NCBI GenBank assembly: GCA_001602435.1
Contig: CP012156.1
Span: forward strand, 3,417,898 to 3,481,897
Direction of reading: 5' to 3'
Origin: Hyphomonadaceae bacterium UKL13-1
GTDB lineage: Bacteria > Pseudomonadota > Alphaproteobacteria > Caulobacterales > Aquidulcibacteraceae
Length of the DNA: 64,000 nt
The translations under genes and the position numbers were made by a program. The notes below the pieces were generated by a model, which was not told the DNA's origin, made no database searches, and saw nothing but the letters and a program-made list of their open reading frames with translations. Below are positions 359 through 56,578 of this stretch, piece by piece. How positions within the stretch are numbered: position 1 is the stretch's first letter; every line of letters begins with the position of its first letter.

Positions 359-376
359 GCGCAGCATGAGCTGCGC
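359..376 (+). terminator. Hairpin after putA, possible terminator
   Basis: GCGCAGC, a four-base loop, then GCTGCGC form a perfect 7-bp stem, followed within a few bases by TTCTTTT. It lies 49 bases after the putA stop and could end its transcript. It also occupies the place where repeat copies B and C carry GCGCAAC/GTTGCGC hairpins, so it may simply be a degenerate member of that repeat family. Confidence 0.45.
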
Positions 377-645
377 GGTTCTTTTGGTGGGGTTTCTATC
401 TAGAAGCGTTTTGGTGATCCTTCCGGCCCACCAAACCGCTAACTCAATTGTTCTTGCGACCTCTGGGCAGTCACGTGTCCGTTTTCTCTGAAAACGGATC
501 GCTTAGCGACGCAGCAAAGCTGCGCACTTGACGACCCAGATGTCGCGGGCAAGCTCGATGACCTATTTTGGTGGAACGTAGGTTGCACCAAAATAGGTCC
601 AGATCGTCAGCACAAATTCGCCCCGCAACACCCTAGGGCTAAGGC

Positions 646-802
646 GCGCTCCCCTCTCCCTTTGGGAGAGGGGACGGGGGTGAGGGCTTACACGCGCGGA
701 TCTATAAGGCGGGTTGGCGAGCTTTTAGTTGCACAGAACAAGTAGCTTTTACGCCCGTAAGCCCTCACCCCCTACCCCTCTCCCAGCAGGAGAGGGGAGC
801 GC
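646..802. repeat. Long inverted repeat with GCGCTCCCCTCTCCC arms
   Basis: Two arms of about 45 bp (646-690 and 758-802) are near reverse complements. Each arm itself contains a short palindrome of the type CCTCTCCC/GGGAGAGG followed by a CCTCACCCCC-like tail. Copy B keeps only a single 33-bp palindrome (21403-21435) in this place, and copy C has a similar full pair (55806-55978). The whole could extrude as a cruciform or fold as a strong RNA hairpin. Confidence 0.75.
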
Positions 803-850
803 ATAGATAAAAACTTATCCCCCACCCATCAAACCCCGCATAACTTAAGG

Positions 851-1293
851 CCATCACCAACGAGAGGGCGTTGTTGCTGCAGCGGCGACACCGGTTGGGG
901 ATGATAAGCGGGATTAATCGAGGTTGAAGTGGCGACCTCGTGTTTCATTGGGATTAGCTGTCCTGATGCCCGGTGTGCTTGAGCCCGACTGCCGTGTGAA
1001 GCCCTCGGTCAAGAACTTAGGCGATGCCTTTGAGACGCCTTGGGGAAGCCTTATGTAGTTTTTGAAGCGCAAGCTTCTAGGATGAGGCCTTTACGAACTA
1101 GGCGGGGGAAATTTGAACCACCCGTGGCGTCATGAACCACCTAAGCACACAGAACTTTTCAGCCGGGGCGCACGGTTTGCGTCGTATTCCGGGCCAGTCC
1201 GTTAATCTGGCCCACCTATTTGGCGAACACCACGCGCCCCGGCCCCTCACTCAGCCGCACCCCCGGTGGTTTCCCACGCGGGGCTATGGGTGT
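851..1293 (+). repeat. Core of the three-copy repeat, copy A (candidate structured RNA or mobile element)
   Basis: About 444 bp, nearly identical to 20911-21354 and 55314-55759, which lie in the opposite orientation. Conserved pairings on this strand: CGAGGT/ACCTCG, GAAGC-GCAA-GCTTC (a GNRA-type loop), GCCGGGGCGC/GCGCCCCGGC enclosing GGGCCAG/CTGGCCC, and a terminal GTGG-TTTY-CCAC hairpin inside CCCC/GGGG. Short open frames exist but are not preserved: copy C has a one-base insertion relative to A and B near the CCCGGTGTGC segment. A non-coding role is therefore likely. Because the GNRA loop reads correctly only here, this strand is the more probable RNA sense strand. Confidence 0.7.
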
Positions 1294-1464
1294 TTCCACT
1301 CAGAGCGCCTTTGCCGCAGGCTATGCCTCCGCAAGGTCCGCTGGGCGAAGCGCAGGCCTACGCGCTAAACACAAAAATATGTCCTTGCGAACAGTGGTTA
1401 ACCCTTGCCGAATGAGGCCCTTGCGCGCATGTTTAGGTTCGGGACGGGCAAGTGGAGAGATGAG

Positions 1465-2067
1465 ATGAAAACGCTTGTAACTTTGATTGCCCTTGCTGCA
1501 ACAATGGGCCTGTCGGCCTGCGCCACGACGACGACCAAGTCTGGCCCGACGCCCTATCAAGCAGCGGCAACAGGCAAATTTGGCTTTACCGATCAACGGA
1601 TTGAGGCCAATCGCTTTCGCATTACCTTTGACGGCAATACCAAAACCACACGACAGCAGGTCGAAGATTCGCTTTTGTTGCGTGCGGCGGATGTGACCAT
1701 CGACAATGGTTTTGATTGGTTTCAGATAGCCCAGCGCTTTACCGATCCAAAAACCTATAGCCGCCCAAAAATGGGGTCGCGCTGGGCCTTTGGTGGCGGG
1801 ATTGGCTATAGTAGTTTTAGAACCTTTCACCCGCGATATGGCTGGGTGAGCTATTATGACCCCTTCTGGTCAAACGGCTTTTATGATCCGTTCTTTGATC
1901 GGTTCGACACTGAAGAAATCACCCGCTTTCAAGCCACTGCCGAGATAATTCTCGGCAAAGGCCCTAAGCCGTCTGACCGGACCGATGCGTATGATGCACG
2001 GGATGTGAAGACGAATTTAGGCGCGCGCGTCACGCCGCCACCACCTCCGCCAGCAGCAAAGTCCTGA
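1465..2067 (+). CDS. CC0125/CC1285-like lipoprotein
   Basis: A 200-residue predicted outer-membrane or periplasmic lipoprotein. The N-terminus has a hydrophobic segment ending in the lipobox LSAC (Cys19). The mature part carries YSDQ-like GFTDQRIEANRFRITF and VEDSLLLRAADVTIDNGFDWF, which I recognise as the Caulobacter CC0125/CC1285 family; its biochemical role is unknown. The C-terminus ends in a proline run. I chose the ATG at 1465 because it is preceded by GTGGAGAG and gives a normal lipoprotein signal; an upstream in-frame start at 1405 would bury the signal. The stop overlaps the next start (TGATG), suggesting co-translation with the cupin gene. Confidence 0.8.
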   Translation: MKTLVTLIALAATMGLSACATTTTKSGPTPYQAAATGKFGFTDQRIEANRFRITFDGNTKTTRQQVEDSLLLRAADVTIDNGFDWFQIAQRFTDPKTYSRPKMGSRWAFGGGIGYSSFRTFHPRYGWVSYYDPFWSNGFYDPFFDRFDTEEITRFQATAEIILGKGPKPSDRTDAYDARDVKTNLGARVTPPPPPPAAKS

Positions 2068-2423
2068 TGCGGATCATTTTGTTCCGAGGTTCGGAAGTGC
2101 CTGTTGAGCCTTGGCAACCAGAGCCTGATCGGGTTGTGGTGGCCGGGGCCAAAGGCGGCACGCAGAATTTGTATGAAAGTGGCGATGGCCGAGTCTATGC
2201 CGGCATCTGGCACGCGACGCGCGGCGCTTGGCGGGTCACCTATGACGAGATGGAATATTGCCACATCACCAAGGGCCGCGCCCGCCTCACCGCGTTAGAC
2301 GGCGAGGTGACAGAGGTTCAAGCGGGTGATGGCTTTGTCATTCCAAATGGCTTTGAAGGCGTTTGGGACGTGCTGGAAGATATGGAAAAGCACTATGTGA
2401 TCGTGTTGCCGCTGCAGCTTTAG
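2067..2423 (+). CDS. Cupin-domain protein
   Basis: A 118-residue single-domain cupin, without signal peptide. The pattern EMEYCHITKGRARL followed by DGFVIPNGFEGVWDV matches the cupin_3 / DUF861 type, where enzymes acting on small metabolites (for example ureidoglycine aminohydrolase) are found. The substrate cannot be read from the sequence. The start codon overlaps the preceding lipoprotein stop by one base, so the two genes probably share a transcript. The typical His metal ligands are only partly present (one His in the first motif), so catalysis is uncertain; it could be a binding or stress protein. Confidence 0.75.
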   Translation: MRIILFRGSEVPVEPWQPEPDRVVVAGAKGGTQNLYESGDGRVYAGIWHATRGAWRVTYDEMEYCHITKGRARLTALDGEVTEVQAGDGFVIPNGFEGVWDVLEDMEKHYVIVLPLQL

Positions 2424-2451
2424 CGGGGGTACTTGTTTCGATTTGCTTGGA

Positions 2452-2487
2452 CATGGTTTTGGTGACTTTTGGGTCCCCAAAACCATG
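2452..2487. repeat. TTTTGG/CCAAAA hairpin, divergent relative of the mosaic repeat
   Basis: Perfect 11-bp arms CATGGTTTTGG (2452-2462) and CCAAAACCATG (2477-2487) with a 14-base loop. The TTTTGG...CCAAAA design matches hairpins in copies A, B and C, suggesting a diverged member of the same family downstream of the cupin gene. Confidence 0.55.
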
Positions 2488-2502
2488 GTCTCGATTGTTT
2501 AG

Positions 2503-2593
2503 CAGTGACTTCGCGGGTCAAGGTCGCAGCTTTGCCGCGTCGCGGTGCGACAGATTTCCAAAGGAAATCTGACCTTGACGCGTAAAGTCACTG
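2503..2593. repeat. 91-bp nested palindrome
   Basis: Outer arms CAGTGACTT with GTCAAGGTC (2503-2525) pair with GACCTTGAC with AAGTCACTG (2571-2593). Inside sit CAGATTTCC-AAA-GGAAATCTG (2551-2571) and a GCAGCTTTGCCGC segment that resembles the GCAGCTTTGC part of copies A-C. The arrangement parallels the palindromic module next to the core repeat. No coding capacity is seen. Confidence 0.6.
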
Positions 2594-2609
2594 ATACAGA
2601 ATCAAAGAA

Positions 2610-2643
2610 GGCCGTTGGTGAGGCATAGCCGTCACCAACGGCC
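2610..2643 (-). terminator. Terminator of the superoxide dismutase gene
   Basis: GGCCGTTGGTGA (2610-2621) and TCACCAACGGCC (2632-2643) form a perfect 12-bp stem with a ten-base loop. On the minus strand it is followed by TTCTTTG. It lies 35 bases beyond the sod stop, the expected place for a Rho-independent terminator. Confidence 0.7.
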
Positions 2644-2678
2644 GTCCAGATAGAAAACTCGGATGAAGAGACAGGGGC

Positions 2679-3416
2679 CTACGGCTTTACCGCCTCCGCA
2701 TAAAGCTTGGAGACTTGGTTCCAATTGATCACGCTCCACCAGGCATCGACATAGTCGGCGCGCTTATTCTGATATTTCAGATAATAGGCGTGCTCCCACA
2801 CATCATTGCCAAGGATCGGCTTGCCGCGGAAATCACCGACATCCATCAAAGGATTGTCCTGATTAGGGGTGGAGCCGACGGCCAGTTTGCCGTCTGGCTT
2901 GACGATCAGCCACGACCAACCCGAGCCAAAGCGGCCCATCGACGTGGCGCGGAATTGGGTCTTGAAGGCATCGAGGGAGCCAAAGTCGCGGTTGATTGCG
3001 GCGGTCAGCTCTGGCGAGGGTGCACCACCGGTGCCCAAGGGGGCCATGATCTTCCAGTAGAAGCTATGGTTCCAATGCCCGCCGGCATTGTTGCGGATGG
3101 CGGCTGGGGCGGTCGAAGCAGAAGCTAAAAGCGCCTCAAGGCTCTTCCCCGCATAGGTTGGGTTAGCGACGATGGCTGCGTTCAGGCCCGAGACTTGCGC
3201 GCCATGGTGGCGTTCAAAGTGGATGCGCATGGTGGCTTCATCGACGATGGGCTCTAACGCACCATAGGCATAGGGCAGGGCTGCTTGCGTGAAAGCGGGC
3301 GCGGCTGGTGTCGCGGCGACGGCAGGTGTTGTTTGTGCCGTAGGGGCAGTCAGGGTTTGGGCGAATGCGGCTGAAGACAACAAGCTTAAGGCGGAAAGGG
3401 TCAGGGCTAGGCGCAT
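2679..3416 (-). CDS. Secreted Fe/Mn superoxide dismutase
   Basis: A 245-residue enzyme that dismutates superoxide. The N-terminus MRLALTLSALSLLSSAAFAQ is a clear Sec signal peptide, so it probably acts in the periplasm. Expected metal ligands are His66, His117 (in HWNHSFYW), Asp205 and His209 (in DVWEHAYYL). The Gly-Gly before HWNH and Gln186 in TPNQDNPL are features associated with manganese rather than iron enzymes, an inference from family rules. An Ala/Pro/Thr-rich linker (21-45) separates signal and enzyme. I chose the ATG at 3416, which starts directly at the signal peptide, over an upstream start at 3467. It stands alone, divergent from slyX. Confidence 0.9.
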   Translation of the reverse strand: MRLALTLSALSLLSSAAFAQTLTAPTAQTTPAVAATPAAPAFTQAALPYAYGALEPIVDEATMRIHFERHHGAQVSGLNAAIVANPTYAGKSLEALLASASTAPAAIRNNAGGHWNHSFYWKIMAPLGTGGAPSPELTAAINRDFGSLDAFKTQFRATSMGRFGSGWSWLIVKPDGKLAVGSTPNQDNPLMDVGDFRGKPILGNDVWEHAYYLKYQNKRADYVDAWWSVINWNQVSKLYAEAVKP

Positions 3417-3550
3417 GAATTCTACTTTCGTAAAGATGTGGCTGGAACATGGTCTGCGGCGTGGCAAGAAACAAGTCTGAGCGTGCTGACAATAATGTCA
3501 CCAAGCCAGCCATCTTGCTTTAATATCAGTGCATAAAGAGGGCACGAAGT

Positions 3551-3754
3551 ATGGAAGAACGCGTTGAAGCTTTAGAAGTTCATGTGATGCATTTGATGCG
3601 CACAGTCGAAGAGCTTTCGGATCTGTCTCATCAACAAGCCGATGAGATTAAGCGCCTCAACCGCCGGCTGGAATTGATGCTGGAACGTGAAGCACAGCGC
3701 CAGCATGACAGCTCAGAACCGCCGCCTCCGGATCAAAAGCCACCTCATTATTGA
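3551..3754 (+). CDS. slyX: SlyX family protein
   Basis: A 67-residue protein, almost entirely a predicted coiled coil (residues 1-50, with leucines spaced in heptads: LEVHVMHLMRTVEELSDL, IKRLNRRLELML). It ends in the proline-rich PPPPDQKPPHY tail typical of SlyX. SlyX proteins are widespread in proteobacteria but their function is not established. The start is an ATG 10 bases after an AGAGGG-like ribosome binding site. It converges with the DUF2332 gene with 12 bases between them. Confidence 0.9.
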   Translation: MEERVEALEVHVMHLMRTVEELSDLSHQQADEIKRLNRRLELMLEREAQRQHDSSEPPPPDQKPPHY

Positions 3755-3766
3755 AGTGGCATGCGC

Positions 3767-4840
3767 CTAGGCCCCATGCCAGTGGACAAAGCGGCCATGG
3801 GGATCAAGGTCGGCCAGCACACGCCTGCGACCATACGGCCATTCGATCAGCTCCAAGATCATACTGGCACCCTTCTGCTCATGTCCCAGAATGCCGCCGG
3901 GTTCAAAGCGCAACCAAGCTAACGGGGCCTCAGCCGTGGCGCGTGCCCCTTCGGTCTCGATGGCGAGCGTGATCGCATCGCGCACGGCTTGGGGCGGATA
4001 TTGGAAGAAGACCGAGTGATAGATCACGGTAAGCGCATCTTTGGCGCGGGTTGCAAGCTTTGCCTTGATCCAGTCGGCCGCATCACCGGCATCGGATGTG
4101 ATCGACTGGGATCGGGCGATTTCCATGGCCGCATTGACGCGCTCTAACCGCTCGGGCTGGTCAGGCCAGATGTAGGCGCGTAGGCGCAGGCGATCTTCAG
4201 GCAGGGCGGCATTCAACGGCTTCTGGTCACATGCCGCGCGGTGGCGGATGGCGGCGTGTGCCGGGAAACGGGGCGGCGGGCCGCTCCACTGCGTCGACAG
4301 AGCAACGCGCGGTCCAGCGACGGGGCTGTCCCACGTCCATGTGCCACCATCATAGTGAAAGCGGTCCATGCTGAGATTAAGCCCTGCCGACGCCCCAAGC
4401 TCAAGCACGTCCATAGGCCCGTCAAAGGCTTCGGCGGCGGCGCATAGGCCGGGCCAGAGCCCCACAGCGCGGCGTACTTCATTGGTCTGTGGTGGAGATT
4501 TCAAGAAGTCGCGCACCCAGTGCTCCCGCGCTCGCAGGCTTTCCACCGCCACGGGCCAGGCCTCTGCCATAGACCAAGCACGACCTTGCTGCGGCCAGAC
4601 TTGGGCCAAGCGGCCTTCGGGTTCGGTAAGGGCGATGGCATGGAGTGCGCCTGCCAAGCGCAGCGCCAAAGCGTCTTGGACTGGATGGGTTATCCACCCC
4701 CCAGTCAAGTCAGCGATAATGCCACCCGCTTCAAAATCGTCGGCCATGGTTTCGCACAACTCGGCCGTAAAGGGAGAGTCAAACGCTTTGCACCAAATCG
4801 CTTGTTGCCGAAGGGCTTGGGGGACCCCGACGTCCACCAT
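3767..4840 (-). CDS. DUF2332 family protein
   Basis: A 357-residue cytoplasmic protein of the DUF2332 family, recognised from the N-terminal QQAIWCKAFDSPFTAELC and the internal LELGASAGLNLSMDRFHY. The latter resembles the glycine-rich motif I of SAM-dependent methyltransferases (LELGASAGLN), so a methyltransferase-like fold is plausible but unproven. Near the C-terminus HSVFFQYPP and GHEQKGASMILEL are conserved-looking segments. Its ATG overlaps the stop of the upstream CoA-transferase (TGATG), making it the last gene of the run that starts with vapB. Its part in CoA chemistry, if any, is unknown. Confidence 0.8.
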   Translation of the reverse strand: MVDVGVPQALRQQAIWCKAFDSPFTAELCETMADDFEAGGIIADLTGGWITHPVQDALALRLAGALHAIALTEPEGRLAQVWPQQGRAWSMAEAWPVAVESLRAREHWVRDFLKSPPQTNEVRRAVGLWPGLCAAAEAFDGPMDVLELGASAGLNLSMDRFHYDGGTWTWDSPVAGPRVALSTQWSGPPPRFPAHAAIRHRAACDQKPLNAALPEDRLRLRAYIWPDQPERLERVNAAMEIARSQSITSDAGDAADWIKAKLATRAKDALTVIYHSVFFQYPPQAVRDAITLAIETEGARATAEAPLAWLRFEPGGILGHEQKGASMILELIEWPYGRRRVLADLDPHGRFVHWHGA

Positions 4841-6009
4841 CAGATGGCACCCCGCTCTTTCAAGGCAGCAATGGCGCTGGCATCAAGGCCGGCCTCTGCC
4901 GCCAAGCTTTCAGAATCTGCGCCATAATCTGGCAAGCTCAAGCGCGCCTGCCCCGGCTCATCGCGGAAGCGGATGGGAATGCCCAAATGCTTGTTGCCGT
5001 CTTCATCGGTCAATACCATGCCGCGCGAGATCGTATAGGGGTCTTCCATCGCATCTTTTAGGCTGCGGACAGGGGCCCAGCACAGATCGACATCTTTTAG
5101 GAAGGCGCTCCATTCGTCGAGGGTCCTGCTGGCAAAGGTCTCTTCGAAATAACGCTTTAGTGGGTCTTGGCCGGGGCCGGGCTCCAGCTTGGCATAGTCA
5201 AAAAGATCGGGCCTGCCTAAAGCGTCGAGCAAGTTTTTGGCAAAGTGATGCTCTGACCCACCCAATACCAAGAACTTCCCATCCTTGGTCTCATAAGGCC
5301 GATACATGGCCGCTCCACCAAAGGGTCGCATCTCTTTCGCCACTGGATGGGCGTTATCAGCAAATACGGGACCCAGGACATTGGGCGTCCAAGCCAGAAG
5401 TGCCTCATACATGGACAGGTCGATATAATCGCCCTTGCCCGTCTCGGCCCGGCGATAGAGCGCCATCATGATGGCGGCAAAGGCCATGAGGCTGGCAGCC
5501 ATGTCCGCTGCAGGTATGGAAGGGCTGGCAGGCTTATTGTCGGTCAGGCCTCGGTTCAGATCGACCAGACCTGCCATGGCCTCCATGGTGAGATCATGAC
5601 CGGGCTTATTCACGTATTTGCCGTCTTGGCCAAAGCCCGCGATGGAGCAATAGACGATGCGCGGATTGATCGCGGCGATGGCATCATAATCCACGCCCAA
5701 GCGCTTCACGACGCCGGGCCGGAAGGCTTCGACAATCACGTCAGCCTCTGCGGCGAGCTTCAAAAACAACGCCCGTGCTTCGGGGTCTTTCAGATTGATC
5801 TTCAGGCTGCGCTTGCCGCGGGCAATGTTGCGAAACCAGACCGATACGCCGTCCTCAGTCTTATAGCCAATCACGCGGGTTGGTTCGCCCACGCCATTGG
5901 CAGGTTCCACCATCACCACATCGGCCCCATGGTCTGCCATCATCATCGTCATATGCGGGCCGGGCAAAAAGGCCGAGAGGTCCAGAACTTTGAGGCCTTG
6001 GAGTTTCAT
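4840..6009 (-). CDS. CaiB/BaiF family CoA-transferase (first of two)
   Basis: A 389-residue family III CoA-transferase, which moves CoA between carboxylic acids through an aspartyl-CoA intermediate. Recognisable segments are LKVLDLSAFLPGPHMTMMMADHGADVV, ARGKRSLKINLKDPEA, VIVEAFRPGVVKRLG and the likely catalytic Asp in PAADMAASLMAF. The substrate is unknown. It is separated by only three bases from the second CaiB-type gene upstream and overlaps DUF2332 downstream. The two transferases differ widely in sequence, so they are not a recent duplication; they may act on different acids or as a heteromer. Confidence 0.9.
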   Translation of the reverse strand: MKLQGLKVLDLSAFLPGPHMTMMMADHGADVVMVEPANGVGEPTRVIGYKTEDGVSVWFRNIARGKRSLKINLKDPEARALFLKLAAEADVIVEAFRPGVVKRLGVDYDAIAAINPRIVYCSIAGFGQDGKYVNKPGHDLTMEAMAGLVDLNRGLTDNKPASPSIPAADMAASLMAFAAIMMALYRRAETGKGDYIDLSMYEALLAWTPNVLGPVFADNAHPVAKEMRPFGGAAMYRPYETKDGKFLVLGGSEHHFAKNLLDALGRPDLFDYAKLEPGPGQDPLKRYFEETFASRTLDEWSAFLKDVDLCWAPVRSLKDAMEDPYTISRGMVLTDEDGNKHLGIPIRFRDEPGQARLSLPDYGADSESLAAEAGLDASAIAALKERGAI

Positions 6010-6012
6010 GGC

Positions 6013-7146
6013 TTAATGCTCTCCCATTTTGGGGGCGCGCTTTCCAGCGGGGCGCTTGCCATTGACTTTGATCGGGCTGGCCAACATTTGCAAGCGGCCG
6101 TTCTTCGCATCCGGATGGTCGACGGCGTCGGTCATGCCGATAGCCTTCACGTGAGCGCTGTCGAGGGCTTGGCCGATGTTGTAAATCGGTGCGACAGGAA
6201 CATGACCGCCCAAAAGCGCGATCCATTCGGCCGTCGATTGGGTGCTCAACAGCGCATCAAGGACTTCCGTCAAGGCGACCAGATTGGCCCGTCTGGCTGG
6301 GATGCTGCTAAAGCGAGGATCGGCCAACAGGTCTGGGCGACCCGTCTTGGCACAAAAAATCTCCCAGAATTTTGGCGTTTGGCACATCAACATCAGCCAA
6401 CCATCTTGCGTCTTGAAAGCTTGGCTGGGCGCGATGGAGGGATGGGCCCCGCGTGGCAGGCGGCCCACTTCCACGCCCTCATTCAGATACCAGGTGGCCG
6501 GATAGGAGAGTTGATGCAGGGCCGTATCGAACAAAGCCACATCAATGTCGCAGCCTTGCCCCGTCCGTTGGGCGCCCAAAATCCCGGCCAGCAGACCGAC
6601 TGCCAATTGGCTGCCCGTATGAAAATCGATGATCGACAGGCCGCAACGAACCGGTGGGCCGTCTGGCTCGCCACTCATCGACATCAAGCCTGCCTCGGCC
6701 TGCATCAGATAATCATAGCCCGGCCAGGAAGCGCGATCATTGTCGCGTCCGTAGGCGGAGAGATGGGCGCAGACAATCTTGGGATTGATGGATTTGAGGT
6801 CGTCATAAGTGACCGCCATCTTGGCAGGCTGATCGCCGCGCAGATTGTTCGCCACCGCGTCTGCTTCTTTGACCAAAGCCTCAAACTGGGCGCGGCCTTC
6901 TGGGCTTTTAATCTCCAGCGCGATGGAGGATTTGCCGCGCGAGAAGGTCTGATAGAATTGGCTGTCTTGCGCACCCAAAAAATAGGGGCCGGTGGCCCGG
7001 CTGACATCGCCCCCCATGCTGGGGGCTTCGATCTTGATGATTTCAGCCCCCAAATCCGCCAACAACATGGTGCCATAAGGGCCTGCGCCATATTGCTCAA
7101 TCGAGAGGATTTTGATGCCTTTAAGGGGAAGCCCAGTTGTCTGCAT
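6013..7146 (-). CDS. CaiB/BaiF family CoA-transferase (second of two)
   Basis: A 377-residue family III CoA-transferase. Family features are IKILSIEQYGAGPYGTMLLADLGAEIIKIE at the N-terminus, SRGKSSIALEIKSPEGRA, VANNLRGDQPAKM and the likely catalytic Asp in LSIIDFHTGSQLA. Homologues include mesaconyl-CoA transferases and succinyl-CoA-dependent transferases, but the acid used here cannot be read. Its ATG overlaps the lipocalin stop (TAATG), so translation is probably coupled. A 600-codon frame on the opposite strand across this gene and its neighbour is a shadow. Confidence 0.9.
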   Translation of the reverse strand: MQTTGLPLKGIKILSIEQYGAGPYGTMLLADLGAEIIKIEAPSMGGDVSRATGPYFLGAQDSQFYQTFSRGKSSIALEIKSPEGRAQFEALVKEADAVANNLRGDQPAKMAVTYDDLKSINPKIVCAHLSAYGRDNDRASWPGYDYLMQAEAGLMSMSGEPDGPPVRCGLSIIDFHTGSQLAVGLLAGILGAQRTGQGCDIDVALFDTALHQLSYPATWYLNEGVEVGRLPRGAHPSIAPSQAFKTQDGWLMLMCQTPKFWEIFCAKTGRPDLLADPRFSSIPARRANLVALTEVLDALLSTQSTAEWIALLGGHVPVAPIYNIGQALDSAHVKAIGMTDAVDHPDAKNGRLQMLASPIKVNGKRPAGKRAPKMGEH

Positions 7147-7703
7147 TAGGGTTGAACCGTGTCTTTGAGCAGGTCGGTACGAAAGCCATTTTGCTCTGCG
7201 GCGGCATTCAGCGCAGCCCGCTGTTCAGTCGTGAGCGTCTTGGTGCGCGCCAAGAGCCACAGATAGGAGCCATTCGGGCTGCCCACCAAGGCGGTTTGAT
7301 AATTGGGATCCAGATACAGCACCCAATAATTGCCTTGCCCCTTTGGCAAAGGAATGGGTGCGAAGTTCACCGCAAGCTTTGCATTATTCGAGCCATCAAT
7401 GACGGCAGCCACCCCTTGTGCACTGCGCGGCTTGCCGTCGCTGGTACCCGTCGCACAGGTATTGGTGACCCCAACGCGACCATCGGGGCGCAGGGCGTAT
7501 TCGGCTGTGACGCCTTCGCATTTCTTCTGGAAACTGTTGGGATAGCGTGCAATCTCATACCACTTGCCAGCATATCGGTTAAGGTCAACAGAGGCGACCG
7601 TGATCGGGGGCGCAGCATCTTTTGCTCGCCCCATGGTTCCGGACATGCAGCCCGATAACGCGATGCAACCAATCAATGCGCTGGCATAGAGTGAAATTTT
7701 CAT
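7146..7703 (-). CDS. Lipocalin-family lipoprotein (Blc-like)
   Basis: A 185-residue bacterial lipocalin with a lipoprotein signal (lipobox LSGC, Cys19), so probably anchored in the outer membrane. The lipocalin signature is LNRYAGKWYEIARYPNSFQKKCEGVTAEYAL, with the conserved GxW, and a later YLDPNYQTALVGSPNGSYLWLLARTKTL. Blc-type lipocalins bind fatty acids or lysophospholipids, which would fit the neighbouring acyl-CoA genes, but this is inference. The ATG overlaps the stop of the GFA gene by four bases (ATGA) and the stop overlaps the next CoA-transferase start. Confidence 0.9.
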   Translation of the reverse strand: MKISLYASALIGCIALSGCMSGTMGRAKDAAPPITVASVDLNRYAGKWYEIARYPNSFQKKCEGVTAEYALRPDGRVGVTNTCATGTSDGKPRSAQGVAAVIDGSNNAKLAVNFAPIPLPKGQGNYWVLYLDPNYQTALVGSPNGSYLWLLARTKTLTTEQRAALNAAAEQNGFRTDLLKDTVQP

Positions 7704-8113
7704 CCTGTTTCCCCTTTCATGGGAGGAGAAGACTTATGCGCCAATTTGGCGGCATTGGCTTCCCAGTTCTGACCATCAAACGGCACAATCGAGAGGACGG
7801 GCGCTTGACCAACGTCAAAGCAATTGGCGTTGACGCTGACCCCATCGGGATTGGACCTTGGTGTGTAGAACGCTTTCACACCACATTTGGTACAAAAGGT
7901 ATGATTGGCAACGCCGGTATTGAACCGATAGGAGGTGAGCTTATCAGCCCCTGCCGTCAGTTCGAAATCGTCCATCGGCACAATCAAATGCACAAAGCCT
8001 GTCCGTGCGCAGATGGAGCAATTGCAGGCCTCCACCTCCACTTCATCTGGGGTCCGAACCGCAAAGCGCACATCGCCACAATGGCACGAGCCTGTTCGCC
8101 AAATCTTCACCAT
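7700..8113 (-). CDS. GFA-family zinc protein
   Basis: A 137-residue protein of the GFA / CENP-V family (named after the glutathione-dependent formaldehyde-activating enzyme). The zinc ligands are visible: CHC at 10-12, CNCSIC at 30-35, and FCTKCG further on. Many family members do not act on formaldehyde, so the substrate is open. It overlaps vapC by seven bases upstream and the lipocalin by four bases downstream, placing it inside one tightly packed operon. Confidence 0.85.
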   Translation of the reverse strand: MVKIWRTGSCHCGDVRFAVRTPDEVEVEACNCSICARTGFVHLIVPMDDFELTAGADKLTSYRFNTGVANHTFCTKCGVKAFYTPRSNPDGVSVNANCFDVGQAPVLSIVPFDGQNWEANAAKLAHKSSPPMKGETG

Positions 8114-8499
8114 CCAAGCACCTGTAGCCCTGTTACTTCTTCAAAGTCTTGCGGATTGAGGGTCACCAAAGTGGCACTTGCATTGAGCGCTTGGGCGGCA
8201 ATCATGCGGTCGAGGATTTTGCGGCGTGAGAACCCACAAGATTGCAGAATACTACCATATCGGTCGGCATCTTCCTCCTCAAAAGGGAGTACGGGCATAT
8301 GGGAAAGAAACACATCAAGTCGCTGACGCCTCAGAGTGGCAGAGGATGCCTCCCGATGAACGCCACCCTCCAGTTCCACCCGAGTGATCACAGAAATCGC
8401 AAACCTTCCGCTCAGGCCTTCCAGCTTACCAAGAATGGCTTGGCTGCGATCCCGAACTTCAATCGCGACACTGGTATCGAGCAAATAAAGCCCACTCAT
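8107..8499 (-). CDS. vapC: VapC-type PIN-domain ribonuclease toxin
   Basis: A 130-residue PIN-domain protein, the toxin half of a type II toxin-antitoxin pair that cleaves RNA with Mg2+. The acidic residues expected in the active site are Asp8 (LLDTSVAIE), Glu42 (RVELEGG), Asp97 (ILDRMIAAQAL) and Asp118 (LNPQDFE). All are present, so it should be active. The start overlaps the vapB stop by four bases, the usual arrangement. Unusually, its own stop overlaps the start of the GFA gene, joining the pair to five more genes downstream. Confidence 0.9.
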   Translation of the reverse strand: MSGLYLLDTSVAIEVRDRSQAILGKLEGLSGRFAISVITRVELEGGVHREASSATLRRQRLDVFLSHMPVLPFEEEDADRYGSILQSCGFSRRKILDRMIAAQALNASATLVTLNPQDFEEVTGLQVLGW

Positions 8500-8747
8500 A
8501 GCCCCTCACGCTCGGGAAAAATGTCAGTGTCGCGCACTTCAATGTCGGTGACGTCAGGCAGTTTGCGCAGTTCAGCCATCATTTGCTTGAAACTGATTTT
8601 TCCGGATCGCAATGTCGGCCGCAGGGTAATGACGTCCCCATCGCGCTCCATTTCCAACTCCGTGCCCTCAGGAAAGGCCAACGCCTTTGGCAAGCGCACC
8701 GCTTGGCTATTGCCGCTCTTGAACGTTTTGGTTTTGTGCGTCGCCAT
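8496..8747 (-). CDS. vapB: VapB-type antitoxin (AbrB/MazE-like DNA binding)
   Basis: An 83-residue antitoxin. The N-terminal half KTKTFKSGNSQAVRLPKALAFPEGTELEM is a swapped-hairpin AbrB/SpoVT domain that binds DNA; the acidic C-terminal half (LPDVTDIEVRDTDIFPEREGL) should wrap around VapC. I chose the ATG at 8747, preceded by AGGACAGGA. An in-frame ATG at 8777 sits in the middle of the operator palindrome and would add ten residues unlike the family. It is the first gene of the seven-gene run and is likely autoregulated with VapC. Confidence 0.9.
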   Translation of the reverse strand: MATHKTKTFKSGNSQAVRLPKALAFPEGTELEMERDGDVITLRPTLRSGKISFKQMMAELRKLPDVTDIEVRDTDIFPEREGL

Positions 8748-8765
8748 CGTCCTGTCCTTAGTTGA

Positions 8766-8787
8766 CCGTATATACATGTATATACGG
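8766..8787. promoter_or_regulatory. Probable VapBC operator
   Basis: A perfect 22-bp palindrome made of two GTATATAC half-sites (each itself palindromic) separated by AT and framed by CC/GG. It lies 19 bases upstream of the vapB start. Toxin-antitoxin complexes of this family bind such repeats at their own promoter. Position and symmetry support the call; binding is not shown. Confidence 0.75.
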
Positions 8788-8837
8788 CCATGATCGAGGT
8801 TTCAATCAGATTTCAAACCAAGGTCGGTCTGATCCCC

Positions 8838-10034
8838 CTAAATCGGGTTGCGGGCCACCAATTGCTTGGCGATGATGATGCGTTGCATTTCATTGGTGCC
8901 TTCGCCGATGCACATCAGGGGGGCGTCGCGATAGAGACGCTCGATGACATATTCCTTGGAATAGCCATAGCCGCCATGGATGCGCATGGCTTCCAGCGAG
9001 ACTTCCACGGCAGTTTCCGAGGCGAAGAATTTGGCCATGCCGGCTTCCATGTCGATCCGCTCACCCCGGTCAAAGGCGGCAGCCGCATCTTGGGTCAGAA
9101 GTTCTGCGGCGCGGGTCTTGGCGGCCATTTCGCCCAGTTTAAGCTGAATGGCCTGATGTTCGCAGATTGGCTTGCCCATCGTCTTGCGCATTTGGGCATA
9201 TTTGACGCTCTCGGCCAAAGCGCGCTTAGCAATGCCGACCGAGCGGGCGGCGATATTGACGCGGCCAATCTCGAGGCCGCCAGTGGCCATGATAAAGCCC
9301 TTGCCTTCTTCGCCGCCGACCAAGCTCTTCTTGGCATCAACTTCATAATCTTCGAAGATGAACTCACCAGAATCAATGCCCTTATAGCCGAGCTTCTCCA
9401 GCTTCTTGCCATTCTTGACGCCCTTAAGCGGCACCTTGGTTTCAGGGTCGATCTTGGGCACGATCAGCATGCTCATGCCCTTATGGCGGGGCTGGGCATC
9501 GGGGTCGGTTTTGACCAGCAAGGCTACGCAATGGCCTTCAATAGCGTTGGAGATCCAGGTCTTGGTGCCATTGACGATATAATTGTCGCCTTGACGGCGC
9601 GCGACGGTGCGGATGCCTTGCAAGTCAGTACCGGCATCGGGTTCTGTCAGACCCAGACCGCCACGCATTTCACCGGTGGCGAACTTGGGCAGCCAATATT
9701 CCTTCTGATAATCCGTGCCAAAGCGCTGCACGACGGTGGCCATCATCAAATGCGAGTTGAAGATACCCGTCAGGCTCATCCATTCTTGCGAGATCATGGT
9801 CACGATCTTGGAATAGGTGGTGGCCGACAGGCCAAGGCCGCCGTAATCGGGATGGATGATCGCGCCGAACAGGCCGAGCTCTGCCATGTCATTGACGAGG
9901 TCAGCTGGCCATTCGTTATCATGCTCCAGCTTCATCGCCACGGGGGCGACTTTCTTCTCAATCCATTTCTGGATGGCGTCCAGCATCTGGCGCTCATCTG
10001 CTTCGCTGATATGTCCAAAATTTCCGTCTGCCAT
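8838..10034 (-). CDS. Acyl-CoA dehydrogenase
   Basis: A 398-residue FAD-dependent acyl-CoA dehydrogenase that puts a 2,3-double bond into an acyl-CoA and passes electrons to ETF. Motifs: GLGLTEPDAGTDLQGI (FAD/substrate loop), NGTKTWISNAIEG, and RIHGGYGYSKEYVIERLYRDAP. The expected catalytic Glu sits in CIGEGTNEMQRIII near the C-terminus. Chain length preference cannot be read. It is the last gene of the operon citE-like, maoC-like, small membrane protein, acyl-CoA dehydrogenase, with an 11-base gap to the small protein. The same gene trio is known from the mycobacterial Rv2498c-Rv2500c region. Confidence 0.92.
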   Translation of the reverse strand: MADGNFGHISEADERQMLDAIQKWIEKKVAPVAMKLEHDNEWPADLVNDMAELGLFGAIIHPDYGGLGLSATTYSKIVTMISQEWMSLTGIFNSHLMMATVVQRFGTDYQKEYWLPKFATGEMRGGLGLTEPDAGTDLQGIRTVARRQGDNYIVNGTKTWISNAIEGHCVALLVKTDPDAQPRHKGMSMLIVPKIDPETKVPLKGVKNGKKLEKLGYKGIDSGEFIFEDYEVDAKKSLVGGEEGKGFIMATGGLEIGRVNIAARSVGIAKRALAESVKYAQMRKTMGKPICEHQAIQLKLGEMAAKTRAAELLTQDAAAAFDRGERIDMEAGMAKFFASETAVEVSLEAMRIHGGYGYSKEYVIERLYRDAPLMCIGEGTNEMQRIIIAKQLVARNPI

Positions 10035-10044
10035 GATGATGATC

Positions 10045-10263
10045 CTAGTCTTTCATGTTTTCTTTGAGTTTTTTGGCGGCAAGCAGGTCGGCAACCACAT
10101 AGGTGACGAGCGCCAGAGTGAGAGAAGGGGTAGCGGCATCCAAGATCCGGCCGATAACAACCAATGGGCCGGCACCGCCATGGTCGCTCCCCATCATGAC
10201 CATCATTCCGCCAATCCCTTCTAGGGCGGCGAGCACAGCGAGAATGCGGAGCAACAGAACCAT
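10045..10263 (-). CDS. Small membrane protein, unknown function
   Basis: A 72-residue protein with two likely membrane helices (MVLLLRILAVLAALEGIGGMMV and LVVIGRILDA through LALVTYVVADLLAA) and a charged tail KKLKENMKD. I do not recognise a family. It is supported as a real gene by a start codon that overlaps the maoC stop (TGATG), by an 11-base gap to the next gene and by a protein-like composition. It could anchor or regulate the acyl-CoA enzymes around it, but nothing in the sequence shows that. Confidence 0.6.
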   Translation of the reverse strand: MVLLLRILAVLAALEGIGGMMVMMGSDHGGAGPLVVIGRILDAATPSLTLALVTYVVADLLAAKKLKENMKD

Positions 10264-10784
10264 CAGTAATTGCCCACCTTATCCTCGACGGCATGGCCGC
10301 GAGCGGGGATCAGCATGTTGCGCTTGAAGGTGCACACCATGACGCCATCTTGGTTGAAGCCCTTGGTGACGATGGTCACAATGCCTTGACCGGGGCGCGA
10401 CGCGCTTTCGCGTTTGGCGAGGACTTCGCTCTCCGAATAAAGCGTGTCACCTGCAAAGACGGGGGCGGTGAACTTCACTTCATCCATGCCCAGATTGGCG
10501 ATCGCCTTCTGGCTGGTGTCGGTCACGCTCATGCCGATGCAAAGCGCCAACGTGTAGGGCGAGACGACGAGGTTCTTTTTGAACTCGCTCGCGGCGGCAA
10601 ATTGCGCGTCAAAGTGCATCGGGTGGGTGTTCATCGTCATCAGCGTGAACATGTGGTTGTCATACTCGGTGATCGTCTTGCCGGGGCGGTGCTCATAGAC
10701 ATCGCCGACGACGAAATCCTCAAAATAGCGACCAAATGTCTCGCGGTAGCGCTGGGGGCCAACTTCTTTCACGTTTCGGACCAT
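10263..10784 (-). CDS. MaoC-family enoyl-CoA hydratase
   Basis: A 173-residue hot-dog-fold hydratase. GKTITEYDNHMFTLMTMNTHPMHFDAQFA carries the hydratase-2 pattern (Asp and His of the DxxxxH type), followed by VVSPYTLAL and VKFTAPVFAGDTLYSESEVL. The TMNTHPMHFDA form resembles mesaconyl-CoA and itaconyl-CoA hydratases rather than long-chain enzymes, a suggestion only. It lies two bases from the CitE-like lyase gene, which fits hydration followed by C-C cleavage of a branched dicarboxyl-CoA. Confidence 0.88.
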   Translation of the reverse strand: MVRNVKEVGPQRYRETFGRYFEDFVVGDVYEHRPGKTITEYDNHMFTLMTMNTHPMHFDAQFAAASEFKKNLVVSPYTLALCIGMSVTDTSQKAIANLGMDEVKFTAPVFAGDTLYSESEVLAKRESASRPGQGIVTIVTKGFNQDGVMVCTFKRNMLIPARGHAVEDKVGNY

Positions 10785-10786
10785 GG

Positions 10787-11650
10787 TTAGAACTCAATTC
10801 CTGCTTTAGACAAAATACGCTCTGCGCGCAGATAGACGGGGATGTCGAGCATTTTGCCATCAAGTAAAACGGCGCGGCCATCCTGCGATTTGAAAGCTTC
10901 ACTTACGCGCTTGGCCCAGTCTAACTCAGCTTCAGAAGGCGAGAATACTTCATTAACAATGGCGACTTGGCTGGGGTGGATGCAGGCCTTACCGTCAAAA
11001 CCCAAGGCCTTCACGCGCACACATTCCGCCCGCAAGCCTTCTTCGTCCTTCACGTTCAGATAGGGCACATCCATCAAGGTTCCGTTGGTGACGCGCGCCT
11101 CGGTAGCCAAGGTTGAGCGAGCGTGAAACAGCGCCTCCCAGTCCATCCCGGTGCCAATGGCAAGTGAGTAGTCGGCCCCACCGAACAAGACGCCACCGCG
11201 CGAGCCGCAGGTTCCGGCTATTTCAGACGCACTTTTTAGCCCCGCCACGGTTTCGATCACGGCCCAAAGCGCCACGCGCTTCTGATTTAGGTCGCGCAAA
11301 TGTAGCAATTGCTGGAAGTTGGCGAGGGCTGAATAGGACGAGGCCTTTGGGATCATGAAGAAATTTGGGCGGGCCTCGGTCTCACTAAAGGCGATGATGT
11401 CCTTGAGGCCATCCAAAGTGTCGAGGCCATTCATGCGCACGCCAATCGCGCAAGCCGGATAGCTCTCGGCGTTGACCTCCAGCCAGCCAATTACCCTAGC
11501 GCGAGCGGCGGCTTTATCTTGCGGCGGCACAGCGTCCTCAAGGTCAATGCAAATGGAATCAGCCCCCGCCGCCAGTGCCTTTTCAAAGCGGTCTGGCCGG
11601 GAGCCCGGGACAAAGAGGAGTGATCGAAACGTTTTCATTTGTCCGGACAT
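10787..11650 (-). CDS. CitE/HpcH-family CoA-ester lyase
   Basis: A 287-residue TIM-barrel lyase/aldolase of the citrate lyase beta / malyl-CoA lyase group. Motifs are FRSLLFVPGSRPDRFEKAL, ICIDLEDAVPP (metal-binding Glu and Asp), VRMNGLDT, FMIPKAS and GGADYSLAIGTGMDW; the C-terminal GFDGKACIHPSQV is also typical. Such enzymes cleave 3-hydroxyacyl-CoAs (malyl-, methylmalyl-, citramalyl- or HMG-CoA). It is the first gene of its operon. The start at 11650 (ATGTCCGG) is preceded by AGG; an ATG 12 bases inside is an alternative. Confidence 0.88.
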   Translation of the reverse strand: MSGQMKTFRSLLFVPGSRPDRFEKALAAGADSICIDLEDAVPPQDKAAARARVIGWLEVNAESYPACAIGVRMNGLDTLDGLKDIIAFSETEARPNFFMIPKASSYSALANFQQLLHLRDLNQKRVALWAVIETVAGLKSASEIAGTCGSRGGVLFGGADYSLAIGTGMDWEALFHARSTLATEARVTNGTLMDVPYLNVKDEEGLRAECVRVKALGFDGKACIHPSQVAIVNEVFSPSEAELDWAKRVSEAFKSQDGRAVLLDGKMLDIPVYLRAERILSKAGIEF

Positions 11651-11729
11651 TTAACCTGATATAAGCTGACGTCAATTCGAAACCGCGCGACGGTGTGACT
11701 TTGGGTCGGCAAGCAGGGGAATTTAGGTT

Positions 11730-12308: not shown

Positions 12309-12337
12309 GGCGCTTTGCCAAGTTAAAGCCGATGTGC

Positions 12338-14725: not shown

Positions 14726-14755
14726 CGGTACAAATCCCTGAGGGAGCTAATCGGT

Positions 14756-17665: not shown

Positions 17666-17729
17666 GGCGTGATCTTAGGCCAGCGTGCTACGACTTCCAA
17701 TCCCAAAGTCTTTTGGCCGCACAGGGGCT

Positions 17730-19277: not shown

Positions 19278-19323
19278 CGCTCGACTGTAACCAGACTTTT
19301 CAGGCGTGCAAACAACTAACCCA

Positions 19324-20121: not shown

Positions 20122-20130
20122 CAGACGGAC

Positions 20131-20910: not shown

Positions 20911-21354
20911 ACACCCATAGCCCCGCGTGGAAAACCACCGGGGGTGCGGCTGAGTGAGGGGCCGGGGCGCGTGGTATGCGCCAAATGAGGTGGGCCAGAT
21001 TAACGGACTGGCCCGGAATACGACGCAAACCGTGCGCCCCGGCTGAAAAGTTCTGTGTGCTTAGGTGGTTCATGACGCCACGGGTGGTTCAAATTTCCCC
21101 CGCCTAGTTCGTAAAGGCCTCATCCTAGAAGCTTGCGCTTCTAAAAATACATAAGGCTTCCCCAAGGCGTCTCAAAGGCATCGCCTAAGTTCTTGACCAA
21201 GGGCTTCACACGGCAGTCGGGCTCAAGCACACCGGGCATCAGGACAGCTAATCCCAATGAAACACGAGGTCGCCACTTCAACCTCGATTAGTCCCGCTTA
21301 CAATCCCCAACCGGTGTCGCCGCTGCAGCAACAACGCCCTCTCGTTGGAGATGG
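20911..21354 (-). repeat. Core of the three-copy repeat, copy B
   Basis: The 444-bp core in reverse orientation. All stems listed for copy A are kept, including AGAAGC-GCAA-GCTTCT read on the minus strand (one pair longer than in copy A) and the ten-pair GCCGGGGCGC/GCGCCCCGGC stem. Differences from copy A are scattered point changes and small indels. Confidence 0.7.
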
Positions 21355-21722
21355 CCTTAAGTTATGCGGGGTTTGATGGGTGGGGGATAAGTTTTTATCT
21401 ATGCGCTCCCCTCTCCCAAAGGGAGAGGGGAGCGCGCCTTAGCCTTAGGGTGTTGCGGGGCGAATTTGTGCTGCCGATCTGGACCTATTTTGGTGCAACC
21501 TACGTTCCACCAAAATAGATCATCGAGCATGCCCGCGACATCTGGGTCGTCAAGTGCGCAGCTTTGCAGCGTCGCTAAGCGATCCGTTTTCAGAGAAAAC
21601 GGACACGTGACTGCCCAGAGGTCGCAAGAACAATTGAGTTAGCGGTTTGGTGGGCCGGAAGGATCACCAAAACGCTTCTAGATAGAAACCCCATCAAAAG
21701 GACCGCGCAACAAAAGTTGCGC
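20911..21722 (-). repeat. Mosaic intergenic repeat, copy B (whole element)
   Basis: Reverse-complement counterpart of 359-1293, about 95 percent identical by eye over the shared parts but about 123 bp shorter. The missing piece lies inside the long inverted repeat: only a 33-bp palindrome (21403-21435) remains, as if the rest had been deleted between its arms. It fills the gap between the hydrolase and the amidase genes together with the hairpins at 21705-21815. No protein-coding potential is evident. Confidence 0.85.
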
Positions 21723-21758
21723 ATGCAAACGCGATGACAAGCGCAACTTTTGTTGCGC
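21705..21758. repeat. 54-bp REPIN-like double hairpin, copy 1
   Basis: GCGCAAC-AAAA-GTTGCGC (21705-21722) and GCGCAAC-TTTT-GTTGCGC (21741-21758) are separated by 18 bases and are reverse complements of each other, so the block can fold as two small hairpins or one long one. Two more copies of exactly the same length occur at 55240 and 56238. Confidence 0.8.
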
Positions 21759-21778
21759 GCTCCGTTCCCCCGAACGAT

Positions 21779-21815
21779 GTCATCCCCGCCGAAGCGTCAG
21801 CGAAGAGCGGGGACC
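21779..21815. repeat. GTCATCCCCGCC half element
   Basis: GTCATCCCCGCC followed by AGCGGGGACCTC forms an imperfect palindrome with CCCCGC/GCGGGG arms. It matches the first part of the 92-93 bp elements at 55061 and 56313. The rest of this gap (21816-21906) shows nothing beyond a CGCATGCG-type short palindrome. Confidence 0.6.
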
Positions 21816-21906
21816 TCAGTGAGTTTGTGCGTTCCCCTTCGCCGCCCGTGGCGGACATCGGCGCATGCGCCGAAACCCCATGAATGGCGAAGGGACTGAA
21901 GTGGTC

Positions 21907-55153: not shown

Positions 55154-55239
55154 GTTTCAGGTTTTTCCATCTGGACCCATTTTGGTGGAAACCCTGTTTC
55201 ACCAAAACGCGTCTAGATAGAAAGCCCAACAAATGGATC

Positions 55240-55293
55240 GCGCAACAACAGTTGCGCTTGTCAGTGCGTCGACAGGCGCAACTGTTGTTGCGC
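55240..55293. repeat. 54-bp REPIN-like double hairpin, copy 2
   Basis: GCGCAAC-AACA-GTTGCGC (55240-55257) and GCGCAAC-TGTT-GTTGCGC (55276-55293), 18 bases apart. Loops AACA and TGTT are complementary, so the two halves are perfect reverse complements over 18 bases. Confidence 0.8.
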
Positions 55294-55313
55294 GCTCCTC
55301 TCCCCCCTCACCC

Positions 55314-55759
55314 ACACCCATAGCCCCGTGTGGAAAACCACCGGGGGTGCGGCTGGGTGAGGGGCCGGGGCGCGTGGTATGCGCCAAATGAGGTGGGCCA
55401 GATTAACGGACTGGCCCGGAATACGACGCAAACCGTGCGCCCCGGCTAAATAAGTCTGTGTGCTTAGGTGGTTCATGACGCCACGGGTGGTTCAAATTTC
55501 CCCCGCCTAGTTCGTAAAGGCCTCATTTTAGAAGCTTGCGCTTCCAAAACTACATAAGGCTTCCCCAAGGCGTCTCAAAGGCATCGCCTAAGTTCTTGAC
55601 CAAGGGCTTCACACGGCAGTCGGGCACAAGCACACTCGGGCATCAGGACAGCTAATCCCAATGAAACACGAGGTCGCCACTTCAACCTCGATTAATCCCG
55701 CTTACCATCCCCAACCGGTGTCGCCGCTGCAGCAACAACGCCCTCTCGTTGGAGATGGG
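55314..55759 (-). repeat. Core of the three-copy repeat, copy C
   Basis: The core, reverse orientation, most diverged of the three. It keeps the stems seen in copy A: the ten-pair GCCGGGGCGC/GCGCCCCGGC, the GGGCCAG/CTGGCCC hairpin, GGAAGC-GCAA-GCTTCT and the CGAGGT/ACCTCG hairpin. A one-base insertion relative to A and B, in the segment read as CCCGAGTGTGC, breaks any shared reading frame. Confidence 0.7.
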
Positions 55760-55805
55760 TATAAAATATCTGAGGTTTTGAGAGTGAGGATAAGTATTGT
55801 TTTAT

Positions 55806-55978
55806 GCGCTCCCCTCGCCCTTTGGGGTCGACCTATAGGTCGACAGGAAAGGGGTGAGGGCTTGTCGGGCGCAAAAGCTCATTATTCCTAGAGATTTAGA
55901 TTGGCCCATCCGCCCTCAATTATGGTGACTGCAAGCCCTCACCCCCGTCCCCTCTCCCAAAGGGAGAGGGGAGAGCGC
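55806..55978. repeat. Long inverted repeat in copy C
   Basis: GCGCTCCCCTCGCCC at the left and GGGAGAGGGGAGAGCGC at the right, with GGGTGAGGGCTTG/CAAGCCCTCACCCC inside, enclose a spacer containing GTCGACCTATAGGTCGAC, a perfect 18-bp palindrome. It corresponds to 646-802 of copy A. Confidence 0.65.
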
Positions 55979-56237
55979 TTGCGCATTAGGTTCGCGGACT
56001 GACGGGAGTTTCCATCTGGACCCATCTTGGTGGAAACCCTGTTTCACCAAAATGGATCATCGAGGATGGCCGCGACCTCTGGGACGTCAAGTGTCCGTTT
56101 TCTGCGAAAACGGATCGCGTCGCGACGCAGCAAAGCTGCGCACTTGACCACTAAGATGTCGCAAGAACAATTTCGGTAGCGGTTTGGTGAACCGGAAGGG
56201 TCACCAAACCGGGTCCAGATAAAAATCAAAATGGATC

Positions 56238-56291
56238 GCGCAACAACAGTTGCGCTTGTCTGCGCGTCTACAGGCGCAACTTTTGTTGCGC
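56238..56291. repeat. 54-bp REPIN-like double hairpin, copy 3
   Basis: GCGCAAC-AACA-GTTGCGC (56238-56255) and GCGCAAC-TTTT-GTTGCGC (56274-56291), again 18 bases apart. The two loops are mismatched, unlike copies 1 and 2. Confidence 0.8.
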
Positions 56292-56312
56292 GCTCCTTCC
56301 TCCTCGAACCTT

Positions 56313-56404
56313 GTCATTCCCGCCAGAGCGAAGCGCAGGGTGGGGACCTCATCAGATTTTGCAGCACAAGGTCTGGGACTCGGCTGCGCCATCGGGGATG
56401 ACGT
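56313..56404. repeat. 92-bp GTCATTCCCGCC...GATGAC element, copy 2
   Basis: About 80 percent identical by eye to 55061-55153, with the same GCACAAGGTCTGGGACTCGG middle part and GGGGATGACGTCGTTTC end. Both copies flank copy C. Confidence 0.75.
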
Positions 56405-56578
56405 CGTTTCAGGGTGTTTTCGGTTTGAGCCATTTGGTGGTCTGGGGCGGTGTCGGGTTGCTTCTTTATGAAGCCAATTTAACCTAGTCGAGGATTGACC
56501 TTCCGCCATGATCGCCGCCAGATTCTGTCTGGCTTAAAAACATCATTGGATGGTCAATCAGAGCTTGTGAGGTGGCAA

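What the first reader, a model, noticed from the sequence alone, without database searches (positions are those of the whole stretch)
359..1293. A large mosaic non-coding repeat present three times in 64 kb
Copies A (359-1293), B (20911-21722, reversed) and C (about 55165-56225, reversed) share the same order of palindromic modules and a core of about 444 bp. Such long, multi-part intergenic repeats are unusual for a compact alphaproteobacterial genome, and none matches an insertion sequence I know. Three copies in one window predict dozens in the genome. Each follows the end of a gene (putA, hydrolase, kdsD).
Basis: partly seen in the sequence, partly recalled or inferred. Interest (0 to 1): 0.65.

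Follow-up and report, generated by a model that had tools for sequence, protein, structure and literature searches.

The report
Dispersed structured-RNA repeats in Aquidulcibacter
A freshwater bacterium carries about two dozen scattered copies of a roughly 490-letter folded RNA sequence, each usually joined to a chain of DNA palindromes; one extra copy forms the tail of a small gene, and the copies mark the places where the chromosome has been flipped and rearranged.

Summary
The core (851-1293) has 24 near-full copies in the 3.5-Mb genome, median 98% identical. Relatives occur in 7 of 9 Aquidulcibacter species and nowhere else found. Each dispersed copy joins two unlike parts. The 5' part, 370-620 bp in most copies, is a mosaic of palindromes. 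They vary alike on both strands (DNA-level, MITE/REP-like) and also occur without the core. The 3' part (about 804-1293) behaves as an RNA: 99% of pair cells are kept across 5 species, 15 pairs change on both sides, and the structural signal is strongest on the core + strand. It matches no Rfam family. In five species one copy forms the 3' end of a 123-126-codon gene. Codons 1-84 are under protein selection; codons 85-126 are not, and the dispersed copies begin near that border. A near-empty site in the closest sister suggests gain of the core in this lineage. Copies A, B and C lie exactly at inversion breakpoints between species. I found no Y1 transposase in this genome and no reverse transcriptase in four of the seven carriers. 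Best reading: a lineage-specific amplifying repeat with an RNA-active core, moved in trans or by recombination. How it moves and what the RNA does remain inferred.

The parts
359..381 (+). Copy A: remnant of module M3 (GCGCAAC/GTTGCGC-type palindrome; full form GGACCGCGCAACAAAAGTTGCGC...GCGCAACTTTTGTTGCGCGGTCC in other copies)
   Evidence: direct reading of aligned copies; repeat families
382..600 (+). Copy A: module M2, palindromic DNA module with TTTC(C/T)ATCTGGA-type ends, TTTTGGTG..CACCAAAA hairpins and a 22-bp stem GCGACATCTGGGTAGTCAAGTG/CACTTGACGACCCAGATGTCGC; also found without the core elsewhere in the genome
   Evidence: no strand asymmetry
641..803 (+). Copy A: module M1, about 160-bp palindrome GCGCTCCCCTCTCCC...GGGAGAGGGGAGCGC; also found without the core elsewhere
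   Evidence: inverted repeat I13; genome copies; no strand asymmetry
804..1293 (+).
1161..1247 (+). Most conserved long hairpin of the core (GCCGGGGCGC...GGGCCAG TCCGTTAAT CTGGCCC...GCGCCCCGGC)
   Evidence: alignment A2 and model R2
20911..21401 (-). Copy B: RNA-like core
   Evidence: I1, I6; G000:C1:3438808-3439251
21402..21892 (-). Copy B: 5' palindrome mosaic (shortened M1, M2 at about 21481-21688, M3 at about 21689-21771, further modules)
55314..55805 (-). Copy C: RNA-like core
   Evidence: I3, I4, I7; G000:C1:3473211-3473655
55806..56440 (-). Copy C: 5' palindrome mosaic (M1, M2 at about 56018-56225, M3 at about 56226-56300, REP-like tail)
55164..55306 (-). Copy C, 3' side: a second short M2 and M3, so that M3 flanks the core on both sides as a direct repeat
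   Evidence: families D3 and D5; comparison with the G006 site

Best explanation
A genus-specific, recently amplified intergenic repeat made of two layers. Layer 1: a mosaic of DNA palindromes (MITE/REP-like modules) that also exist alone. Layer 2: a core of about 490 nt that is an RNA-coding unit with a conserved multi-helix fold. In five species one copy of the RNA forms the 3' end of a small gene (protein-constrained part about 84 codons) and begins inside the reading frame near codon 85. The dispersed copies start near that point and lack the gene. Shown here: copy number, genus restriction, RNA-type selection on the core but not on the modules, shared sequence and border with the gene tail, presence/absence difference of the core at one site, and breakpoints of block inversions at the copies. 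Inferred: the dispersed copies descend from the gene-linked form; the RNA works by binding a dedicated partner, perhaps the small helical protein; new copies arise by a trans-acting recombinase or by homologous recombination between the shared palindromes, not by a self-encoded reverse transcriptase or transposase; and recombination between copies keeps them alike and flips chromosome segments.
For: Copies and range. RNA-type constraint: 92 pairs, 99.0% of cells paired, 15 pairs and 40 cells changed on both sides (shuffles 6.8 and 10.8, 0 of 500 as high), slid controls 39-49% paired. Consensus energy z -9.6 against column shuffles. With gene-linked copies removed, + strand z -7.5, - strand -3.2, strand difference z -4.1. 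In pairs common to both strands' folds, G-U occurs in 20 and A-C in 3. Modules M1 and M2: G-U against A-C pairs 7:8 and 5:6. Gene link: one ORF in each of 5 carriers with the RNA directly after it; dN/dS 0.12-0.28 for codons 1-84 and mostly 0.4-1.7 (one pair 2.8) with lowered pS for codons 85-126; the dispersed 5' border CAGCAGGGAYAAAAC matches the ORF near codon 85. Predicted protein confident only over helices 21-88. Core absent in G006 (flanks 92-96% identical) and G003 at site C. Block order: G004 is G000 with block X (1405-20889) inverted between A and B; G007 has block Y (21907-55039) inverted between B and C.
Against: No transcription data. No transposase, reverse transcriptase or target-site duplication was tied to the element. 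A single copy's fold is not unusually stable (z -1.04). The G-U to A-C contrast weakens with another alignment (11:3) and without gene-linked copies (5:2). Direction is open: the element could have inserted into the end of the gene instead. The full ORF was not found in carriers G003 and G007. No site with clean target duplications was found; the G006 site itself holds palindrome modules.
Confidence: 0.55

Rival explanations
1. A host-serving regulatory RNA or 3'-UTR module: the RNA stabilises, terminates or regulates the transcripts behind which it sits, and copies are kept because they are useful, spread passively by recombination.
For: Copies sit just behind stop codons; the RNA fold and an invariant inner hairpin are conserved. 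Related idea in print: bcr10 and bcr18 repeats of Bacillus cereus are transcribed as UTR parts and have conserved secondary structure (PMC3446304).
Against: Positions turn over: at site C the core is absent from the closest sister and from G003. The core lies in either orientation relative to neighbours. Copies cluster partly by genome in the tree.
Confidence: 0.25
2. An ordinary MITE/REP mosaic without RNA function; the core is only another palindromic module.
For: Flanked by palindromes that vary like DNA; mosaic order and allele mixing; intergenic, gene-end position.
Against: Strand asymmetry and covariation of the core, constraint shift inside the ORF at the border, multi-branched fold, and no Y1 transposase in the genome.
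Confidence: 0.12
3. The link with the ORF is incidental: an element inserted once into the 3' end of an ancestral gene (as Rickettsia palindromic elements do) and supplied its tail; the gene has nothing to do with the RNA.
For: Codons 85-126 show no protein-level selection and low model confidence; dispersed copies are far more numerous.
Against: The gene-linked copy of G000 carries no 5' palindrome mosaic, the ORF was found only with the RNA and only in carriers, and G005 and G007 dispersed copies carry the ORF-type tail sequence.
Confidence: 0.3
4. A derivative of an RNA-based mobile element of known type (group II intron, retron or DGR RNA, TnpB/IscB guide RNA, IS110 bridge RNA).
For: A structured RNA at the 3' end of an ORF, overlapping it, with RNA-only dispersed copies, resembles the layout described for TnpB with its guide RNA (own knowledge).
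Against: No Rfam match up to E=10 beyond spurious ones; the ORF has no Pfam, PHROG, NCBIfam or PDB relative; no reverse transcriptase in carriers G002, G004, G006 and G007; no Y1 transposase in G000. TnpB and IS110 proteins were not searched for.
Confidence: 0.07

Closest known systems
Bacillus cereus group repeats bcr1-bcr18, especially bcr10 and bcr18 (PMC3446304, PMC6542083)
   Same: Lineage-restricted interspersed repeats; bcr10 and bcr18 have conserved predicted RNA structure and are transcribed in UTRs; bcr1-3 resemble MITEs.
   Different: Those are 100-400 bp; nothing I read links them to the 3' end of a gene. Here a core of about 490 nt is joined to separate DNA palindromes, and copies mark inversion breakpoints.
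Rhizobium-specific intergenic mosaic elements (RIME) and E. coli BIMEs
   Same: Intergenic mosaics of palindromic modules in varied combinations (own knowledge; cited in PMC2873474).
   Different: No module homology was tested; those mosaics are, to my knowledge, small and palindromic throughout, without a large RNA-like core.
REP elements with RAYT (Y1) transposases (PMC2817692)
   Same: Small palindromes at gene ends in many copies.
   Different: No Y1 transposase was found in this genome, and the core is not a simple palindrome.
TnpB with guide RNA overlapping its 3' end (for example RAGATH-18-derived RNAs of IS607, PMC11061315)
   Same: Layout: ORF followed by, and overlapping, a structured RNA; RNA-only copies can exist.
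   Different: The ORF here is 123-126 codons with no nuclease relative; no Rfam match to RAGATH or HEARO families; no sequence relation.

Membership tests
REP/BIME mobilised by RAYT | Y1 (RAYT) transposase in the genome, flanked by the repeats | tested here: not met
   PF01797 search of the own genome: 0 matches, while controls ring in 5 genomes
MITE | Terminal inverted repeats, target-site duplication, short non-coding element mobilised in trans | tested here: inconclusive
   Palindromic modules M1 and M2 look MITE-like; the core has weak end similarity only in some alleles; no clean target duplication
Group II intron or retroelement | Reverse transcriptase encoded in the genome, and match to intron RNA models | tested here: not met
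   No RVT_1 in four carriers; two distant RT-like hits in G000 not examined for linkage; no Rfam intron match
TnpB/IscB guide-RNA element | TnpB or IscB-type nuclease ORF, and RNA of a known guide family | tested here: inconclusive
   Linked ORF is not nuclease-like and no Rfam match; the rest of the genome was not searched for TnpB
Repeat with conserved functional RNA (bcr10/bcr18-like kind) | Multi-copy repeat with covariation-supported RNA fold | tested here: met
Repeat with conserved functional RNA (bcr10/bcr18-like kind) | Transcription | not testable with these tools
   no RNA data held
Integrated phage or plasmid segment | Matches in phage, viral or plasmid collections | tested here: not met

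The most novel reading that the evidence does not exclude
An unrecorded kind of RNA-based mobile element: a small gene whose protein and 3'-terminal structured RNA act together as a particle that places copies of the RNA sequence behind host genes, without a self-encoded reverse transcriptase or known transposase.
Probability: 0.15. Interest if true: 0.88.

Novelty: new variant of a known kind. Interest (0 to 1): 0.62.

Why it matters
It is a large, previously unrecorded structured RNA family in which an RNA-type selection signal can be separated from neighbouring DNA palindromes by strand asymmetry. It lies at the end of a small gene whose protein constraint stops where the RNA begins. It offers a test case for whether bacterial repeats can spread on account of an RNA they encode, and it shows repeats marking block inversions between species. 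It also helps explain why draft genomes of this genus break into contigs at these sites.

Tried and rejected
Known RNA families: Rfam at gathering and permissive thresholds gave only spurious miRNA-like hits to the M1 hairpin and two chance hits. RAYT mobilisation: no Y1 transposase. Phage or plasmid origin: no matches. Wider distribution: covariance models of two core domains over 348 genomes of the order found only the genus; one weak hit in another genus (G053, E 6.8e-4) lacks the conserved sequence and is taken as chance. Domain search, PDB profile search and fold search of the small protein gave nothing. Single-sequence folding is not informative. A first attempt to enter a structure string had the wrong length and was redone. 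Literature on Aquidulcibacter holds no report of this repeat that I found.

Full report
Check of the observation. The repeat exists as described. Inverted-repeat search gives A-B matches of 443 nt at 98% and A-C matches of 245 and 153 nt at 96% and 90%. The whole genome (one contig, 3,501,508 bases) holds 24 matches of at least 398 nt to 851-1293; the 23 not linked to the ORF have a median pairwise identity of 98%. Homology among copies runs from 370-620 bp before the core in most copies (1,000 in one) to a short distance after it; the gene-linked copy has none before it.

Range. Seven of nine genus members carry the core, none of 51 other members of the family, and covariance models of two domains found it only in this genus among 348 genomes of the order, apart from one chance-like hit.

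Two layers. The 5' part is a chain of palindromic modules in fixed order (M3, M2, linker, M1), with alternative alleles mixed between copies. M1 and M2 also occur without the core. For M1 and M2 the folds of the two strands are equally good and wobble changes are balanced (G-U against A-C pairs 7:8 and 5:6), as expected for DNA palindromes. The core differs. Seventeen copies from five species give 92 helix pairs with 99.0% of cells paired; 15 pairs change on both sides against 6.8 in shuffles and 2-7 in slid controls. The consensus fold is far better than column shuffles (z -9.6). With the three gene-linked copies removed, the + strand is at z -7.5, the - strand at -3.2, and the strand difference at z -4.1. 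In pairs common to both strands' folds, G-U appears in 20 and A-C in 3; this ratio is weaker with another alignment and with fewer sequences. I take this as selection on an RNA read in the core's + direction. Its most conserved part is the hairpin at 1161-1247, nearly invariant in sequence. Rfam has no such family.

The gene-linked copy. In G000, G002, G004, G005 and G006 one copy of the RNA directly follows and overlaps an ORF of 123-126 codons. Its neighbours differ in G000, G002 and G006. Codons 1-84 show dN/dS 0.12-0.28, while codons 85-126 mostly show 0.4-1.7, with lowered synonymous change, so the constraint switches from protein to RNA inside the frame. The 5' border of dispersed copies that lack M1 (CAGCAGGGAYAAAAC...) falls near this switch, and some dispersed copies in G005 and G007 keep the ORF-type tail. 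The predicted protein is confident only over helices 21-66 and 71-88, and has no relative in Pfam, PHROGs, NCBIfam or the PDB. Descent of the dispersed copies from this form is the simplest reading but is not proven; insertion of an element into the gene's end is a serious rival.

Turnover. At site C (kdsD to the next gene) the closest sister G006, with flanks 92-96% identical, has palindrome modules but no core, and G003 also lacks the core, so gain in this lineage is likeliest. After the hydrolase gene both G000 and G006 have an element in the same orientation, but of different subfamily, although that gene is 93% identical. Copies cluster partly by genome in the tree. This fits recent amplification or conversion within each lineage. 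No Y1 transposase is present in G000, and no reverse transcriptase was found in four carriers, so a self-encoded mover of these kinds is not supported. At C the core is flanked by directly repeated M3 modules, which would allow gain or loss by homologous recombination; this is inference.

Effect on the chromosome. Two blocks of this window, X (1405-20889) and Y (21907-55039), are internally almost unchanged across species, while their order and orientation differ exactly at A, B and C. G004 equals this genome with X inverted between A and B, which are inverted copies. G007 has Y inverted between B and C. G001, which lacks the core, has a third arrangement.

Verdict. A new variant of the known kind 'multi-copy intergenic repeat with conserved RNA structure' (compare bcr10 and bcr18, PMC3446304). 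It is unusual in size, in combining an RNA-type core with DNA-type palindromes, in the gene-end overlap, and in marking inversions. Transcription, function and the way it moves are untested.

Noticed in passing
window 1405-20889 and 21907-55039, against G004:C70, G007:C77, G001:C4: Two conserved gene blocks are flipped or reordered between species with breakpoints at the repeat copies.
   Followed up: yes
M2 modules of L167, L173 and copy C compared with copy A: The inside of the 22-bp M2 stem (ACGGA hairpin plus GCAGC hairpin) occurs in both orientations in different copies, as if flipped between its stem arms.
   Followed up: no
window 48486-48683: Tandem 33-bp repeats inside a 141-codon ORF (11-residue repeat rich in A, T, E, N, V, D).
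   Followed up: no
G000:C1:2191456-2192031 and 2117129-2117530 (L201, L203): Two distant reverse-transcriptase-like ORFs in this genome, absent from most genus members; not near any listed repeat copy by coordinates.
   Followed up: partly
G002 (contigs CAMDDL010000002, CAMDDL010000006 and others): A MAG labelled Maricaulis salignorans falls in the same genus as the window and carries the Aquidulcibacter repeats; the label looks wrong.
   Followed up: partly
G002 to G007 contig ends: Many draft contigs end inside the core or its modules, so these repeats are a main cause of assembly breaks in the genus.
   Followed up: partly
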